DNA from: Anabaena subtropica FACHB-260
GTDB lineage: Bacteria > Cyanobacteriota > Cyanobacteriia > Cyanobacteriales > Nostocaceae
Assembly (NCBI RefSeq): GCF_014697105.1
Contig: NZ_JACJRF010000050.1
Coordinates: 1 to 39,128 of the forward strand
DNA: 39,128 bases
Direction: 5' to 3'
Position numbers and translations under genes: made by a program. Positions within the stretch are counted from its first letter, which is position 1. Every line of letters starts with the position of its first letter. The notes beneath the pieces are model-generated. The model was not told the DNA's origin, searched no databases, and was given only the letters and a program-made list of their open reading frames with translations. Of the stretch, positions 4,119-26,374 are shown one piece after another.

Positions 4119-4246
4119 TAGTCAGTTGTCAGTTGTCAGTTGTCAGTTGTCAGTTGTCAGTTGTCAGTTGTCAGTTGTCATTAGTCCATAGTTATTCTTT
4201 GCTTCCCCTGCTTCCCCTGCTCCCCCTGCTCCCCTGCTTCTTCTGT
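4119..4246 (-). repeat. composite tandem array before ruvX
   Basis: Two arrays lie head to tail. At 4122-4180 there are eight perfect copies of TCAGTTG (CAACTGA on the minus strand) plus a partial copy. At about 4199-4246 there is a degenerate 9-10-base unit (GGGGAAGCAG on the minus strand). Read toward ruvX the order is GGGGAAGCAG array, spacer, CAACTGA array, ATG. The same order and orientation occurs before the recombinase-like gene at 18997. Confidence 0.9.
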
Positions 4247-16420: not shown

Positions 16421-18328
16421 GTGTCTCAAATAATTAACACTGAGCAACAAGGTCATTATCGCTACAATCCTATTGGGTTAAATCAAAAGGGAGCGGCTCG
16501 GATATTTCCTTATACAGGGGAAGATGGGGCGTTGCTTTATGTTTTGACAAAATTACGGGAAGATGCGCTAAAACAGGGAAAATTATCTGAGCCTTGGAGT
16601 TTGTTGCTGAAGCAGTTCGATCAGGCGATCGCCTCTATAGATAAAACTTGGCTAGACTTATCTACACTTTTAGTAGATTGGGAAGTCTTTCAATCGGGTT
16701 GGTTTAATCTCTATTTACCGCCAAACGAACAATTCAATCCTAGTTATGTGCGGGAACGCCGGGAAATGGGACAGAGGCTTTCAGCCGCAAAGAAAGCAGC
16801 AGAATCAACAACAGGAATTGAACAGCAAAGGGCGTTATTTTATCAATCCCTGGAAAGCAGTGCTAAAGCCAATAAATATCAATTTCCTTATATTCCCACC
16901 CGTCCAGTAGCTAGTGTAATTCATAAACGGGATGGAGGTTTAAGCGATCGCGAGTTTGTCCGGCAAAGATTGGCGGGACAAAACCCAATGGTATTACGGC
17001 GAGTGCAGCCAACAGACCAAGCATTACTACAATCTTGGACAATTCACTCTAGTACTGTAAATTTAATCCAATCAGCAGGCGAAAATCGCTTATTTGTCGC
17101 TGATTACCCTTTATTCAAAGATTTAAAAGTTACAGAATTACAATCTGGTAAATACTTAGGTAATCCCGTCGCAGTATTTCATCGTTCTGAAGGCGGGTTA
17201 GAACCGATACTGATTGAATTAGAGAAAGGTCGAGTAGTCACTCCTACACAGATTGGAGGTGGTGCAGATGATTGGACAAGGGCAAAACTCTATGTACAAT
17301 CGGCGGATGCAACCCATCATGAGTTGTTTTCTCACCTCAGCTATACCCATTTAGCAATGGAAGTATTGGCGATCGCTACTCCTAGACAGTTACCCAGTAA
17401 TCATCCTTTCTATCAATTACTCAGCCCTCATTTGCAATTTTTACTGGCAATTAATCAACGCGGTAATCAAATCCTACTACAAGAAGGTTCCGCTATTAGT
17501 TCATTAATGGCTCCTGTGCGGGAGGTATCTTTGGGATTGATGAACAAAGCTTATCGGGAAAGGATTTTTTGGGATTACGCCTTACCCAACGACATTGAAC
17601 GGCGAGGAATCGAAACTAAGTTTCTTCCTGAATATCCTTATCGAGATGATGCGTTACTTTTGTGGGAAGCGATCGCCAAATATACTAGCAGTTATTTACA
17701 ACGCCATTATCTAGATGATAAGGCAGTATTGAAAGACCCCTATTTGCAAGCTTGGGCGAATGAACTCAGCACACCTTTAAACACTCGTCCCAAATCAGAG
17801 TTTCCCCAATTACCAACTTGGTGTCCACCAGAATGGGCGATCACTTCTGGACTACAACCCCAAGAATTACCACCCCATCCCCGCATACCTGGATTCACTA
17901 AAATTACTAGTCTGCAACAACTCATCGATATTGCCACAATCATTATTTTCACCTGTGGCCCCCAACACGCAGCCGTTAATTTTAGTCAGTTTGATTATTT
18001 CGGTTACGTACCCAATGCACCGTTTGCACTCTACAGTCGTCCCGATACACCAGTCAGTCTGCCAGAATTACTACCACCTGCCGAGAAAGAACTCAAACAA
18101 ATGGAGTTAACTTTTGCTTTGAGTGGAATTTCTTGGGGAAAACTTGGTAGTTCTGAGTTGATTCAGTTTGCTAATCGAGGCGATCGGCAAATCCTCTCTC
18201 AATTCCAAAGCGAGTTAGTAGAAATCGAAACCAAAATCAAAATTCGTAACCAGAAACGTTTAGTAAACACTGGCGTTGACTATCCTTACCTTTTACCTTC
18301 CCGCATTCCTAACAGTATTAATATTTGA
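16421..18328 (+). CDS. lipoxygenase
   Basis: A 635-residue non-haem iron lipoxygenase, which adds oxygen to polyunsaturated fatty acids such as linoleate. All iron ligands are visible: His300 and His305 in HHELFSHLSYTH, His516 and Asn520 in GPQHAAVNF, and the C-terminal Ile635 (RIPNSINI). The line WTRAKLYVQSADATHHELF is typical of the family. There is no obvious PLAT/beta-barrel domain in front, only a helical N-terminal region, as in compact cyanobacterial forms. Translation starts at GTG 16421, with AGGAA about ten bases upstream. It is divergent from the photolyase-like gene and has no signal peptide. Confidence 0.92.
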   Translation: MSQIINTEQQGHYRYNPIGLNQKGAARIFPYTGEDGALLYVLTKLREDALKQGKLSEPWSLLLKQFDQAIASIDKTWLDLSTLLVDWEVFQSGWFNLYLPPNEQFNPSYVRERREMGQRLSAAKKAAESTTGIEQQRALFYQSLESSAKANKYQFPYIPTRPVASVIHKRDGGLSDREFVRQRLAGQNPMVLRRVQPTDQALLQSWTIHSSTVNLIQSAGENRLFVADYPLFKDLKVTELQSGKYLGNPVAVFHRSEGGLEPILIELEKGRVVTPTQIGGGADDWTRAKLYVQSADATHHELFSHLSYTHLAMEVLAIATPRQLPSNHPFYQLLSPHLQFLLAINQRGNQILLQEGSAISSLMAPVREVSLGLMNKAYRERIFWDYALPNDIERRGIETKFLPEYPYRDDALLLWEAIAKYTSSYLQRHYLDDKAVLKDPYLQAWANELSTPLNTRPKSEFPQLPTWCPPEWAITSGLQPQELPPHPRIPGFTKITSLQQLIDIATIIIFTCGPQHAAVNFSQFDYFGYVPNAPFALYSRPDTPVSLPELLPPAEKELKQMELTFALSGISWGKLGSSELIQFANRGDRQILSQFQSELVEIETKIKIRNQKRLVNTGVDYPYLLPSRIPNSINI

Positions 18329-18412
18329 TATCTGTCCGGCTTAATCAGGAATTTTAGCGGCTGTATAAGTTTTTCTGGGGATGGTGGTCTATCAAGTTAG
18401 TTTTGACTGTTC

Positions 18413-18438
18413 GTAGTAAGGACTTTAGTCCTTACTAC
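18413..18438. repeat. dispersed palindrome (GGACTTTAGTCC type)
   Basis: A 26-base palindrome with 12-base arms (GTAGTAAGGACT and AGTCCTTACTAC) around TT. It lies 85 bases past the lipoxygenase stop and could act as an mRNA-end hairpin. Its core is shared with the element at 15306-15346. Confidence 0.75.
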
Positions 18439-18547
18439 AAGCTTGTTTATCCCTCAATTCAAATTTGATGACCTACTAGAGTTCCATCGAGAAAAAACTG
18501 GTAAGTAGGTAAACTGAATAAGGAAAAGCGATCGCCCCTTACCAACA

Positions 18548-18907
18548 ATGCAAATTACCCAGAGTCTCCATACAGCCATTATCGTCTCTAATCTAGAACG
18601 GTCAGAACACTTTTACAGTCAAGTGTTGGGATTATCCAAAATTGACCGTACTTTAAAATATCCTGGTGCATGGTATCAAGTCGGTAATTATCAAATTCAT
18701 CTAATAGTTGCGTCAGATGTCCCTACCCAGAATCAAAACGAAAAATGGGGACGCAATCCCCATATTGCTTTTTCTGTCGCTGACTTAGAAGTAGCCAAGC
18801 AAGAGTTACTCAATCAAAATTATCCCATTCAACCAAGCGCCTCCGGTCGTCCCGCCCTCTTCACTCAAGACCCTGATGGGAATATTATCGAGTTGAGTCA
18901 GATGTGA
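18548..18907 (+). CDS. VOC (glyoxalase-fold) family protein
   Basis: A 119-residue single VOC domain protein. The two beta-alpha-beta-beta-beta halves start at SLHTAIIVSNLERSEHFY and HIAFSVADLEVAKQEL. Candidate metal ligands are the His near residue 7, His in YQIHLIV, His in NPHIAF and the Glu in NIIELSQM at the end. This pattern fits glyoxalase I, fosfomycin-resistance or dioxygenase-like enzymes, and the sequence alone does not choose among them. It follows the lipoxygenase on the same strand, but 219 bases and a palindrome separate them. Confidence 0.85.
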   Translation: MQITQSLHTAIIVSNLERSEHFYSQVLGLSKIDRTLKYPGAWYQVGNYQIHLIVASDVPTQNQNEKWGRNPHIAFSVADLEVAKQELLNQNYPIQPSASGRPALFTQDPDGNIIELSQM

Positions 18908-18994
18908 GGGAAGCAGGGGAAGTAGGGGAAGCAGGGGAAGCAGGGGGAGTAGGGGGAGCAACTGACAACTAACAACTGACAACTGACAACTGAC
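18907..18994 (+). repeat. composite tandem array before the recombinase-like gene
   Basis: A degenerate GGGGAAGCA/GGGGGAGTA array (about 18907-18960) passes directly into a CAACTGA/CAACTAA heptamer array (about 18958-18993), which ends two bases before ATG 18997. It fills the whole gap after the VOC gene. Order and orientation relative to the start codon match the array before ruvX. Confidence 0.9.
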
Positions 18995-18996
18995 GA

Positions 18997-20289
18997 ATGA
19001 AAATTATTGCCTACACTTACACTGATCCATTACTAGAAACTTCTCCTGTGCAGATTGACTGGGGGTGGGAGGTGGAACGGGTGTATGCAGATTTGGGACA
19101 GCGTTCACAATTACAACAATTATTTACTGACTGTCAAGCTGAATCTTGTGATTATCTCATTGTTCGGCGTTTGGAAGAATTAGGGGATAATTTACAACAG
19201 GTAAGCGATCGCCTCAATCAGTTGGAAGCCATGAGTATAGGAATCATCGCTACGGAACAAGCCTACAACTCAGCAACTTCTCATCTCCGGGCTGATTTGC
19301 TAAAATTATTACAACAAATTCAACTCCAACAACGTAGTCGCCGTATTCGTCAAGGACACGCTCGTAATCGTCTTGAAGCTGCGCCTCCTCCTGGTAAAGC
19401 CCCTTATGGCTATCGCAGAGGTAAAGATAAATATATCCTAGATCGCAGTACGGCTCCAGTAGTTAAGGATTTTTTTGACAATTTTTTACTCTATGGTTCT
19501 CTGCGTGGTGCAGTCCGTTACTTAGCCAAAAAATATGGTAAGAAAATCTCTGTCACCACTGGTAAGCGTTGGTTAGCTAATCCTGTTTATCGTGGTGATA
19601 CTGCATATCAAAATCAGGAAATTATCTCTGATACCCATATTCCCATTATTTCCAGAGAAGAAGCTGCCCAAGTTGATCGACTTTTACGCCGTAATAGCCG
19701 TTTACCTTCTCGTAGCGCCAGCGCCCCCCGTTCTCTGGCTGGGTTGGTTGTTTGTCATCAGTGTCAGTCGCACATGACAGTTACCCGTGTTACTCAACGG
19801 CATCAAGATAAGGAGTATCTTTATTTACGTCCGATTAACTGCCCCCAAAGTCCTAAGTGTCGAGCTATTCCTTACCAAGAAATTTTAGAACATACAATTA
19901 CCAAGGTTTGTAGCGAATTACCTTTGGCGGTAGCAGGGATAAATTTTCCTCAATTAGATACAGTTAAAAATAGCTTAAAAGCAGCGATCGCCCATCAAGA
20001 AGAAATACTTCAACAGTTACCTAATTTAGTCGCAACTGGTATTTTAGATGCGGAAACATCTAAGTTAAGAACTTACAAACTCCGGACAGAAATTTCTACT
20101 CTACAAGCAAAATTAGCAACTCTTCCTCCAGTAAATTTACTCTCTGTTGCTCAAGCAGTTTCTATTCCCCAATTTTGGTTAGATTTATCAGAATCCGAAC
20201 GGAGGTTTTACTTTCGAGAATTTATCCGGCAAATTGAAATTATTCGTCAAAATCAAACCTGGGATTTACAAGTGATTTTTATTTTTTAG
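18997..20289 (+). CDS. XisF-like large serine recombinase relative without catalytic residues
   Basis: 430 residues with the layout of a large serine recombinase. There is a resolvase-like N-domain (1-120), a recombinase domain (about 130-240, PPPGKAPYGYRR..., then KRWLANPVYRGDTAYQN), a zinc ribbon (Cys253, 256, 282, 288) and a coiled coil (about 315-370). The catalytic motif is lost. The usual Y-x-R-V-S is YTYTD at 6-10, so Arg and Ser are replaced by Tyr8 and Asp10. The usual L-D-R-L-G-R is LEELGD at 59-64. The frame is intact and uses host-like sequence including HIP1 sites. It probably binds DNA without cutting it, so a structural or regulatory role is likely. No excision element or xisH/xisI gene is adjacent. 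Confidence 0.8.
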   Translation: MKIIAYTYTDPLLETSPVQIDWGWEVERVYADLGQRSQLQQLFTDCQAESCDYLIVRRLEELGDNLQQVSDRLNQLEAMSIGIIATEQAYNSATSHLRADLLKLLQQIQLQQRSRRIRQGHARNRLEAAPPPGKAPYGYRRGKDKYILDRSTAPVVKDFFDNFLLYGSLRGAVRYLAKKYGKKISVTTGKRWLANPVYRGDTAYQNQEIISDTHIPIISREEAAQVDRLLRRNSRLPSRSASAPRSLAGLVVCHQCQSHMTVTRVTQRHQDKEYLYLRPINCPQSPKCRAIPYQEILEHTITKVCSELPLAVAGINFPQLDTVKNSLKAAIAHQEEILQQLPNLVATGILDAETSKLRTYKLRTEISTLQAKLATLPPVNLLSVAQAVSIPQFWLDLSESERRFYFREFIRQIEIIRQNQTWDLQVIFIF

Positions 20290-20552
20290 ACATTAATTTT
20301 CTTCTCTCTCCAATCTCTAGTTTCTACTTTTACCAAAAGTTTGTATCATTTTTACATAGCTACAAGTATTAAAAAAATTGAGGCAAATTTTCGGCAAATT
20401 TCTCAAAAATAATATCGCTGCTCAGAGAAAATTGAGCTAACCTTGGAATTTAGTATTTATTCAGTAAACAGGTTGTTACTGGGTGGCAACATTAGAGATT
20501 CACTTTGATCTCTATGTAATCAAACCAGCAAGTAAAATGATTAGCATAGAAT

Positions 20553-22172
20553 ATGCAAGAAGGAAGCTTTATTTGGGGTCATCTAGAAAGACAACACCGC
20601 ACGGTTGACAGGTGGATTGATCGCCTATGGCTAGTAGTATTGTTAATTGCCGCATTACTACTGTTCAGCGTTAACCTCGGAGGATTACCCCTACAAGATT
20701 GGGATGAAGGAGTTTTAGCCCAAGTTGCCAGGGAAATAGTGCGAGAATCTGGTGATTCCCTGCGTTGGCTTTATCCCACCCTAAGTGGGCAAGCATACCA
20801 TGACAAACCGCCTCTGATACACATCCTGATTGCAGGGGTTTACTCTGTAGGAGGCGTAAATGAATGGACAACACGTTTACCAGGAGCAATTTTAACAGCC
20901 CTTTCTGTACCATTACTGTATTGTCTTGGGAGAGAGATATTTCGTCAACGTTGGGCAGCAATTTATAGTGCCTTAGTATACTTGACAATGCTACCTGTTG
21001 TCCGTTACGGACGATTGGCAATGTCAGATGGGGTAGTGGTAAGTTTCTTGTTGGTGATGATGCTGTGTGTATTGCGATCGCGTCGAGATTTACGCTACTG
21101 TCTGGGTATTGGTCTAAGTTTAGGCTTGATTTGCCTAACTCAAGGACTATCAGGTTTGTTGTTAGGTGCAGTTGTCCTCGTCTTTTTGTTTTGGGATACA
21201 CCAAGACTACTTAATAGTTATTATCTATGGATAGCGATCGCTCTTGGACTTTTGCCTGTAGCGGGTTGGTATGGCGCTCAACTTCTCAAATATGGTAATG
21301 ATTTTGCCCACAACGGCTTAATCATTCCATTCCTCAAACAAATTGGTGCAATTAGTAGCAAAAACACTCAACCACCTTGGTTTTACATTATCGAACTCCT
21401 CAAATGGACTTGGCCTTGGTTAATTTTTTTACCACAAACTGCACAGTTACTATGGGAAAATCGCAATCTTAGCTGGGCAAGACTCATACTTGTATGGAGC
21501 ATAGTTTATTTACTACTCATGTCTCTCATGAGTGCCAAACTCGCTTGGTACATATTGCCAATTTACCCCAGCTTAGCTTTAGCTTTCGGCGCTCAGTTAG
21601 CAGAAATAGAAAACCTGCCTTTAATGTCATCTTATCCCCGTGCTTGGGTGGCTGGTTTATCAATATTAGCCGTGGTGGCTTCAGCCGGGAGCATTCATTT
21701 TAGCTGGGGTATAACAGCAAAAACTGACTTACAGTTGATTTTTGCCGCCGTAGCTTTAACAATGATTTTGGGGGCAATTTTAGCAGAACGAGGTGACGGA
21801 CAATTTCTCAAGATTTTGTTTTGGGGTAGTTATATTTCCCTACTATTGTTGATGAAATCTAACTACTGGGTTTGGGAATTATGGCAAGCTTATCCTGTAA
21901 AACCTGTAGCAGCCATGATAGAGAAAGCAAATCCAGCAGCAAAGAAGATTTATACATCTTTTCCCTATCATCGTCCCTCATTGGATTTTTATAGCGATCG
22001 TCATATTATCCCAGCTTCTGTTGAAGAGTTGGAACATCGTTGGCACTACGAAACACAACCATATTTACTCATAAACATATCCGACTCTAAACGCCTACAC
22101 TTAGACTCCATCAAGCTACTCGATAAAGTCGAAGGCTGGCAATTAGTCACCAAAGAAACTAATCGATTGTAA
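20553..22172 (+). CDS. GT39/ArnT-type membrane glycosyltransferase
   Basis: 539 residues with about 11 membrane segments. It belongs to the dolichyl-phosphate-mannose/undecaprenyl-linked glycosyltransferase group (GT39, PMT_2). The catalytic acidic motif stands in the first periplasmic loop (PLQDWDEGVLAQVARE), and the second loop has the YHDKPPL motif. LPGAILTALSVPLLYCLGRE is also typical. It would transfer a sugar from a lipid carrier to a protein or lipid on the outer face of the plasma membrane; donor and acceptor are unknown. The last 100 residues are soluble. The gene stands alone, with a 263-base gap before it. Confidence 0.87.
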   Translation: MQEGSFIWGHLERQHRTVDRWIDRLWLVVLLIAALLLFSVNLGGLPLQDWDEGVLAQVAREIVRESGDSLRWLYPTLSGQAYHDKPPLIHILIAGVYSVGGVNEWTTRLPGAILTALSVPLLYCLGREIFRQRWAAIYSALVYLTMLPVVRYGRLAMSDGVVVSFLLVMMLCVLRSRRDLRYCLGIGLSLGLICLTQGLSGLLLGAVVLVFLFWDTPRLLNSYYLWIAIALGLLPVAGWYGAQLLKYGNDFAHNGLIIPFLKQIGAISSKNTQPPWFYIIELLKWTWPWLIFLPQTAQLLWENRNLSWARLILVWSIVYLLLMSLMSAKLAWYILPIYPSLALAFGAQLAEIENLPLMSSYPRAWVAGLSILAVVASAGSIHFSWGITAKTDLQLIFAAVALTMILGAILAERGDGQFLKILFWGSYISLLLLMKSNYWVWELWQAYPVKPVAAMIEKANPAAKKIYTSFPYHRPSLDFYSDRHIIPASVEELEHRWHYETQPYLLINISDSKRLHLDSIKLLDKVEGWQLVTKETNRL

Positions 22173-25464: not shown

Positions 25465-25839
25465 CAACTTAGGTCAGAAATCAATGGTTTAAGTAGTTGA
25501 ATCGATTTTATTTTAGCTGACGTTGAGCTAATAGGAACAATATCCTTTAGTTTTTATCTCAGCCTAGCCAAGTATATTACATTGATCTGCAAAATTGTTG
25601 CACAATTAGCAATATTTGCTAGACAATTTAATTTTGATAATCGTGATAACTATATATAGTTAATGAATCACTGCTAAACTATATTTATTTAAGTTTTCTA
25701 AACTAGAGTAAAAATTTGCCTCCTTAGTTGGCTTGATTGTTGAGGAGAAAAATGATAAGTAAGGCTGATCCTTAGTCATTAGTCATTAGTCATTGGTGAA
25801 GAGAAAACAACTGACAACTGACAACTGACAACTAACAAA
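25465..25839. other. calA / rrf2 divergent gap with STRR arrays
   Basis: The 375-base gap between two divergent regulator genes holds both promoters. The right end carries TTAGTCA copies (about 25772-25795) and then CAACTGA/CAACTAA copies (25807-25836) that end three bases before the Rrf2 ATG. No further gene was seen. Confidence 0.6.
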
Positions 25840-26283
25840 ATGAAACTAACAACTAGAGGACATTATAGTGTGAAGGCATTGCTGGACTTGAGTTTACAAC
25901 CAAGTTATGGGCCAGCATCTGTGAAAGCGATCGCTAAACGCCAAGATATCCCAGCGCCATACTTGGAAAAATTACTAATAGAAATGCGTCGTGCTGGATT
26001 AGTAAAATCAATTCGGGGTAGTGTTGGTGGCTATCAACTAGCACGAGAACCAGTAAAAATATCCATAGGACAAATTTTAGAGGCAGTTGGTGAAACCATC
26101 ACGAATTTACCCCACCATACCCCAACCCCAGCACAAACAGAAGATTGGGTAACATTTAGCCTCTGGCAAAGACTCAACCAGAAACTAAAAGAGGCTTTAT
26201 ACAGTATTACTCTGGCAGATTTGTATTACGATGCTCGTAGCTGGCAAGCCTCCCTCGGAGAAGAAGCAAATTTTGTAGTTTAG
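25840..26283 (+). CDS. Rrf2-family transcription regulator without cysteines
   Basis: 147 residues. The winged-helix N-domain is clear: MKLTTRGHYSVKALLDLS, then VKAIAKRQDIPAPYLEKLL and KSIRGSVGGYQLAREP, as in IscR/NsrR/CymR. Many members bind [2Fe-2S] through three cysteines in the following loop. Here there is no cysteine at all, so the protein must sense something else, or act as CymR-like members do through a partner. The gene lies downstream of an STRR array and 79 bases ahead of cbiB. Confidence 0.88.
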   Translation: MKLTTRGHYSVKALLDLSLQPSYGPASVKAIAKRQDIPAPYLEKLLIEMRRAGLVKSIRGSVGGYQLAREPVKISIGQILEAVGETITNLPHHTPTPAQTEDWVTFSLWQRLNQKLKEALYSITLADLYYDARSWQASLGEEANFVV

Positions 26284-26284
26284 T

Positions 26285-26374
26285 CGATAGTCCATAATCC
26301 ATAGTCAATAATCCAAGTTGATTCCTTTAGACTATTGACCAATGACCAATGACCAATGACCAATGACCAATGAC
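26285..26374 (+). repeat. STRR array running into the cbiB start
   Basis: Imperfect TAGTCCA/TAGTCAA heptamers (26282-26312) are followed by five perfect TGACCAA units (26336-26370) and a partial one. The cbiB ATG (26363) is made by the join of two units. Upstream in-frame ATGs in the array soon meet TGA, so 26363 is the only usable start within it. Confidence 0.85.

What the first reader, a model, noticed from the sequence alone, without database searches (positions are those of the whole stretch)
18997..20289. Large serine recombinase relative with every catalytic residue replaced but an intact frame
The protein keeps the recombinase domain, four-cysteine zinc ribbon and coiled coil of XisF-like enzymes. 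Serine recombinases need Ser and Arg in Y-x-R-V-S and two Arg in L-D-R-L-x-R. Here these read YTYTD and LEELGD. Loss of all four residues without any stop or frameshift in 430 codons suggests selection for a non-cutting DNA-binding role, for example as a regulator or a partner of an active recombinase.
Basis: partly seen in the sequence, partly recalled or inferred. Interest (0 to 1): 0.7.

Follow-up and report, generated by a model that had tools for sequence, protein, structure and literature searches.

The report
Recombinase relative without its cutting residues
A gene that looks like a DNA cut-and-paste enzyme has lost most of its cutting residues but is kept, usually as a single copy, across many cyanobacteria, which suggests it was turned long ago into a DNA-binding protein that no longer cuts.

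Summary
The 430-codon gene at 18997-20289 (+) is real and intact: resolvase-like domain, recombinase domain, zinc ribbon, coiled coil. Four of the five canonical catalytic residues are replaced (Ser10>Asp, Arg8>Tyr, Arg68>Glu, Arg71>Asp). The Arg45 counterpart is kept, so 'every' is too strong. One decaying copy is ruled out: orthologues occur in 177 of 195 genomes of the order and 241 of 388 of the class, and none of 122 distinct proteins has the catalytic set. The replacement residues are conserved; dN/dS is about 0.12. A tree built without the resolvase columns puts 71 of these proteins on one side of a branch from 23 recombinases. Four genomes, in two places on the tree, lack the resolvase domain but keep the rest. 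This genome shows no other serine-recombinase domain, so an obligate recombinase partner is unlikely. Best reading: a domesticated large serine recombinase that binds, perhaps bridges, chromosomal sites without cutting. DNA binding and target are inferred; no structure could be predicted. Ten literature searches listed no paper on this family.

The parts
18997..20289 (+). Large-serine-recombinase-like gene without the catalytic set, 430 aa
   Evidence: ORF list; Pfam/NCBIfam; orthologues
18997..19374 (+). Resolvase-like N-terminal domain, residues 1-126; acidic (median net charge of residues 1-100 is -9 in 67 family members, +1 in 23 recombinases that keep the motifs)
19012..19026 (+). Y6-T-Y8-T-D10 in place of Y-x-R-V-S (nucleophile Ser > Asp, Arg8 > Tyr)
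   Evidence: alignment; conservation
19102..19104 (+). R36, counterpart of catalytic Arg45 of gamma-delta resolvase (numbering recalled), kept in 118 of 119
19171..19188 (+). L59-E-E61-L-G-D64 in place of L-D-R-L-x-R (Arg68 > Glu, Arg71 > Asp)
19405..19716 (+). Recombinase (DNA-binding) domain, residues 137-240, the most constrained part (median dN/dS 0.077)
19735..19896 (+). Zinc ribbon, residues 247-300: C253, C256, C282 (122 of 122), C288 (118 of 118 with a residue); Y274 and Y276 (122 of 122) match the base-contacting Tyr295/Tyr297 of A118 (LI) integrase
19897..20286 (+). Coiled coil and C-terminal part of the zinc domain, residues 301-430, with a conserved G-I-L-D stretch at 348-351
18548..18907 (+). 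Small VOC/glyoxalase-like gene directly upstream, same strand; the most recurrent neighbour, but not obligatory
18908..18994 (+). Short tandem repeats (9-base and 7-base units) filling the gap between the VOC gene and the start codon

Best explanation
It is a domesticated large serine recombinase. An early ancestor within Cyanobacteriia lost strand-cutting chemistry while keeping the recombinase-domain and zinc-ribbon DNA-binding half and the coiled coil that active enzymes use to bring two DNA-bound dimers together. Hosts kept the protein, mostly as a single chromosomal copy, as a site-specific DNA-binding protein that works as a regulator or architectural (bridging/looping) factor without cutting. 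Shown here: conservation of the changed motif across the class, purifying selection, one clade against the comparison recombinases, retention of DNA-contact and zinc residues, loss of only the resolvase domain in four genomes in two places on the tree, and no other serine-recombinase domain in the window's genome. Inferred: that it binds DNA, that it does not cut, that it bridges sites through the coiled coil, and that this regulates or organises something. The target is unknown.
For: Breadth: 177 of 195 genomes of the order and 241 of 388 of the class at E <= 1e-20; one match in 169 of the 177 (my reading of the table). Motif: of 122 distinct proteins none has Arg at position 8 (116 with a residue), one has Ser at 10 (115 with a residue), and the four rows flagged for any catalytic-type residue have only one each. 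Selection: NG86 dN/dS over 30 independent pairs, median 0.125 whole, 0.148 resolvase part, 0.077 recombinase domain. Repurposing: columns 8, 10, 61, 64 are more conserved than random sets of four resolvase columns (110 of 20,000 draws as high); acidic residues in 99 of 115, 109 of 118 and 107 of 118 at 10, 61, 64; residues 1-100 have median charge -9 (67 proteins) versus +1 (23 comparison recombinases), recombinase domain +12 (71) versus +6 (23). DNA contacts: Tyr295/Tyr297 of A118 (LI) integrase (passages of PMC3783163) align with Y274/Y276, invariant in 122 of 122. Resolvase domain not detected in any frame near four copies that have the full C-terminal part, in two places on the tree. 71 of 71 family members on one side of a branch, SH-aLRT 96. 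No match in 72,556 plasmid or 50,697 phage records at E <= 1e-5; none confirmed among 4 pattern matches in viral contigs.
Against: No conserved motif was seen upstream of the VOC gene in the 18 of 63 loci aligned, except the common GCGATCGC word in many of them. Of the predicted DNA-contact positions some vary: the counterpart of Asn208 is T, S or A and that of the linker Asn259 is P, S, R and others. The gene is not indispensable: 11 of 181 good genomes of the order and 126 of 334 good genomes of the class lack a match at E <= 1e-20, and a few copies are broken (L119/L164 and L116; G063). Long branches join in the tree and the search was the quick one. The phage, plasmid and viral-contig searches used one protein and would miss distant relatives. 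Purifying selection does not by itself show DNA binding. The comparison set is called active from its motifs only.
Confidence: 0.62

Rival explanations
1. It is a subunit or modulator of an active serine recombinase, or of an XisF-XisH-XisI-type excision complex.
For: Same domain architecture and XisF similarity (146 bits); XisF-like enzymes occur in some relatives (7 of 120 genomes over the XisF cut-off); 9 of 40 sampled genomes with the gene have further PF07508 matches (my tally), so a local role there is possible.
Against: The window's genome shows no other serine-recombinase domain; in 31 of 40 genomes with the gene it is the only PF07508 match; XisI is present in 20 of 40 genomes with the gene and 6 of 19 without (my tallies), so it is not a requirement. 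XisH was not searched.
Confidence: 0.06
2. The acidic pocket (D10, D32, E61, D64 with R36 and Y6) is a new active or ligand-binding site, for example a metal site, and the domain has new chemistry or senses a small molecule.
For: The replaced positions are conserved and acidic; R36, Y6 and D32 are kept.
Against: Position 10 is Asn in 9 of 115 and something else again in a few; the domain is not found in four genomes that keep the rest; it is the least conserved of the four parts by mean relative entropy. No structure to judge geometry.
Confidence: 0.14
3. Decaying remnant or annotation artefact.
For: A few copies are broken: L119/L164 and L116, G063 in pieces with one stop.
Against: Open frames without internal stops in nearly all matches listed, dN/dS about 0.12, conservation across the class.
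Confidence: 0.02
4. It acts with the upstream VOC/glyoxalase-like protein as one operon, the VOC protein being the sensor.
For: VOC gene upstream on the same strand in 63 of 144 loci (duplicates and near relatives included) and in 11 of 40 wide, more diverse loci, often a few bases away.
Against: Of 40 chosen genomes with the gene 33 have the VOC orthologue but only 11 have it within 1 kb; 6 of 10 chosen genomes without the gene have it too (my tallies).
Confidence: 0.12

Closest known systems
XisF (fdxN-element excision recombinase, NCBIfam NF041201)
   Same: Same domain order; 146-bit match over residues 35-415
   Different: Below the 375-bit cut-off; lacks the catalytic Ser and three of the Arg; no element seen around it; much wider spread than XisF matches over the cut-off (7 of 120 genomes)
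Large serine integrases, e.g. A118 (LI) integrase, PDB 4KIS
   Same: Recombinase domain, four-Cys zinc ribbon, paired Tyr on the DNA-contacting strand, coiled coil
   Different: Catalytic residues replaced, N-terminal domain acidic, no phage or plasmid match found
MrpR (YopR), repressor of prophage SP-beta (PMC10516654: outline with abstract and the section on recombination activity seen)
   Same: Recombinase fold that lost recombination activity; there shown to be a DNA-binding repressor
   Different: Tyrosine-recombinase fold and a prophage gene; the present protein is a serine-recombinase relative in host chromosomes, and its binding is only inferred

Membership tests
Large serine recombinase (as an architecture) | Resolvase + Recombinase + zinc-ribbon domains in this order | tested here: met
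   all three over curated cut-offs
Large serine recombinase (as an enzyme) | Catalytic Ser10 with Arg8, Arg45, Arg68, Arg71 (list recalled) | tested here: not met
   only the Arg45 counterpart is kept
Large serine recombinase (as an enzyme) | Strand cleavage and exchange at att sites | not testable with these tools
   needs biochemistry
XisF (NF041201) | Score over the curated cut-off of 375 bits | tested here: not met
   146 bits
XisF (NF041201) | Located in an excised element interrupting another gene | tested here: inconclusive
   close neighbours are lipoxygenase-, VOC- and mannosyltransferase-like genes and vary between lineages; flanking repeats and excision were not tested
Repurposed recombinase acting as DNA-binding regulator (MrpR-like in role) | Loss of catalytic residues with purifying selection | tested here: met
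Repurposed recombinase acting as DNA-binding regulator (MrpR-like in role) | Sequence-specific DNA binding and regulation | not testable with these tools
   only retention of contact and zinc residues shown

The most novel reading that the evidence does not exclude
A widespread cyanobacterial chromosome-architecture or regulatory protein made from a phage-type serine integrase: it holds two distant, conserved sites together through its coiled coils without cutting, and its former active site, now charge-inverted, has become a constrained regulatory pocket that controls DNA engagement.
Probability: 0.22. Interest if true: 0.86.

Novelty: new variant of a known kind. Interest (0 to 1): 0.68.

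Why it matters
By its domains this gene would be called a recombinase, yet it lacks the residues for the known chemistry and is a widespread chromosomal gene in a major group of photosynthetic bacteria. If it binds DNA it would be a serine-recombinase counterpart of MrpR-type repurposing, kept by hosts rather than carried by a prophage, and would add a widely shared DNA-binding protein of unknown regulon in cyanobacteria. It also offers a natural large serine recombinase that should not cut, useful for separating site recognition and synapsis from catalysis.

Tried and rejected
Decay: rejected by dN/dS and breadth. Shifted catalytic Ser: position 9 is T/S/C/I in 74 proteins and more mixed in 16 distant ones, and the Arg residues are missing. 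Partner of an active recombinase: not possible in this genome as sampled and not the rule elsewhere. XisI complex: co-occurrence is loose; XisH was not searched. Mobile context: no plasmid or phage match and no confirmed viral-contig match, with a single-protein query that reaches mainly close relatives. Autoregulatory site: upstream regions of the VOC gene were taken from 63 loci, 18 of them aligned; no conserved motif except the common GCGATCGC word in many. Promoter-like (8 found, 5.8 expected) and terminator-like (3 found, 1.9 expected) sites in 18200-20700 were near the shuffled expectation. VOC partnership: kept as a weak lead. Literature: ten searches were answered and none of the listings showed a paper on this family. 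Papers opened: PMC5862535 (passages; one reference-list mention), PMC10516654 (outline with abstract; one section), PMC3783163 (outline with abstract; passages), PMC8987985 (passages), PMC4874684 (passages). A weakness: in the larger alignment used for the tree the column of position 10 is misaligned between the two groups, so the Ser>Asp statement rests on the smaller alignment; positions 8 and 61 are Arg in 23 of 23 and position 64 in 22 of 23 comparison recombinases in the larger one.

Full report
What is there. The ORF at 18997-20289 (+) has an ATG start and 430 codons. Pfam Resolvase, Recombinase and Zn_ribbon_recom pass their cut-offs, but the Resolvase match starts only at residue 28. 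The best NCBIfam match is XisF at 146 bits against a cut-off of 375. The four solved-structure matches are two entries of the DNA-binding half of A118 integrase and two of the SP-beta recombinase YokA.

Catalytic residues. In an alignment with ten recombinases that keep the motifs (column counts, which leaves out L165), Y-A-R-V-S stands over Y-T-Y-T-D and L-D-R-L-T-R over L-E-E-L-G-D. In these columns the ten have Arg (10 of 10), Ser (10 of 10), Arg (10 of 10) and Arg (9 of 10). The Arg45 counterpart, R36, is kept. Residue numbers of gamma-delta resolvase are recalled. The comparison proteins are called active only from their motifs.

Breadth. Orthologues at E <= 1e-20 occur in 177 of 195 genomes of the order (170 of 181 good ones) and 241 of 388 of the class (208 of 334 good ones). 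At phylum level 117 of 292 genomes match at E <= 1e-10, but the hits outside the class are weak, 24-29% identical; the five of these that I fetched and read keep the catalytic motifs. Named members include Nostoc, Anabaena, Trichormus, Cylindrospermum, Sphaerospermopsis, Rhizonema and a Chroococcidiopsidaceae genome (26 loci). In my reading, 169 of 177 genomes have one match; some of the others are one copy in pieces.

The changed motif belongs to the family, not to one copy. Of 144 loci, 122 distinct proteins were aligned. Position 6 is Tyr in 116 of 116, position 8 Tyr in 113 of 116 and never Arg, position 10 Asp in 95 and Ser in one of 115, position 36 Arg in 118 of 119. Four rows were flagged: L108 has Ser at 10 but Cys at 8 and no Arg at 61 or 64; L122 has Arg at 61; L105 has Arg and L111 Lys at 64. 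A tree on columns 127-430 only, so without the resolvase domain, puts 71 of these proteins on one side of a branch from 23 recombinases (SH-aLRT 96, quick search). Several branches are long and the program warns of joins between them, so depth and sister group are unsure.

Selection. NG86 estimates over 30 independent pairs of 80-98.5% identity give median dN/dS 0.125 (maximum 0.26); by part, resolvase 0.148, recombinase domain 0.077, zinc ribbon 0.131 (29 pairs), C-terminal part 0.119. Two single-part values exceed 1: the zinc ribbon of L063/L064, where dS is 0.03, and the C-terminal part of L105/L119, where L119 is broken into frames.

The pocket looks inverted rather than eroded. Columns 8, 10, 61 and 64 are more conserved than random sets of four from the resolvase part (110 of 20,000 as high). 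Acidic residues stand at 10, 61 and 64 in 99 of 115, 109 of 118 and 107 of 118 proteins. Residues 1-100 have a median net charge of -9 (67 proteins) against +1 (23), while the recombinase domain is +12 (71) against +6 (23). I read this as a catalytic domain that no longer docks on DNA beside a DNA-binding domain that still does; the domain is nonetheless the least conserved part by mean relative entropy.

The DNA-binding half is kept. The zinc cysteines are invariant: three in 122 of 122 and the fourth in 118 of 118 with a residue. In the A118 (LI) integrase structure Tyr295 and Tyr297 contact DNA bases and Cys274, 277, 302 and 314 hold the zinc (PMC3783163, passages). Counting along the alignment, the two Tyr match Y274 and Y276, invariant in 122 of 122; T188, near the base-reading helix, is also invariant, while the counterpart of Asn208 (T187) is T, S or A, and that of the linker Asn259 (S238) varies.

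Loss of only the resolvase domain. In four genomes, all of family code f55 (G277, G286, G397, G443), the C-terminal 300 residues are complete but a profile of residues 1-113 finds nothing in any frame of 19 kb (two loci) or 5 kb (two loci) around. They fall in two places on the tree. In the two pairs dN/dS is about 0.18 (L123/L124) and 0.13 (L104/L113, dS near saturation). So the changed domain can be dispensed with while the rest is kept.

Context. The most recurrent neighbour is a 119-aa VOC/glyoxalase-like gene upstream (Pfam), in 31 of 66 loci by clustering and 63 of 144 by profile, 11 of 40 among the wide, more diverse loci; the 144 include duplicates, near relatives and loci with only short flanks. 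A mannosyltransferase-like gene lies downstream in 20 of 66, mostly close relatives. Of 40 chosen genomes with the gene 33 have the VOC orthologue and 11 have it within 1 kb; 6 of 10 chosen genomes without the gene have it as well. The link is old but loose. No match was found in plasmid or phage records, and none confirmed in viral contigs.

No general partner. In a draw of 59 genomes of the class, 43 have a PF07508 match; 40 of these carry this gene, and in 31 of the 40 it is the only one (my tally; for six of the 31 the place of the gene was not printed or 20 and I take the single match to be it). In the window's genome (99% complete draft) this is the only PF07508 and the only PF00239 match. 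XisI occurs in 20 of the 40 and in 6 of the other 19.

How it most likely works. Shown: conservation, selection, loss of catalytic residues, retention of most DNA-contact residues tested. Inferred: a dimer binds a conserved site through the recombinase domain and zinc ribbon; the coiled coil, whose G-I-L-D stretch (348-351) is strongly conserved, may link two bound dimers as in integrase synapsis, giving bridging without cutting. Whether this regulates transcription or organises the chromosome is open.

Known or new. MrpR of SP-beta is a tyrosine-recombinase fold that lost recombination and represses (PMC10516654, abstract and one section). I found no paper on a serine-recombinase family like this one in the ten searches named in Tried and rejected. 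I class it as a new variant of a known kind.

Noticed in passing
window 18908-18994: The gap between the VOC gene and the start codon is made of 9-base (GGGAAGCAG) and 7-base (CAACTGA) tandem repeats; other 7-base arrays occur in the window (for example 4121-4180, 25807-25854, 26336-26374).
   Followed up: no
L119/L164 (G323), L116 (G298), G063 contig 21, G038 contig 1, G154 contig 1 at 3060018-3060275: A few copies are in separate frames or pieces, and G154 has a second, partial copy with a stop, so the gene can be damaged or lost in single genomes, unless these are sequencing errors.
   Followed up: partly
G207, G226, G239 (family code f46, about 4.7-5.1 Mb, 1-3 contigs): These genomes have no PF07508 match but do have the VOC orthologue; by size they might be Gloeobacter (a guess from recall), which would place the gene's origin after that split.
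   Followed up: no
window 16421-18328: A lipoxygenase-like gene (Pfam 192.6 bits) lies upstream on the same strand.
   Followed up: no
G111, G090, G102 and other genomes of the order: Many relatives hold XisF-type N-terminal matches in open frames of about 190-200 aa, some in several copies; probably small serine recombinases, not looked at.
   Followed up: no
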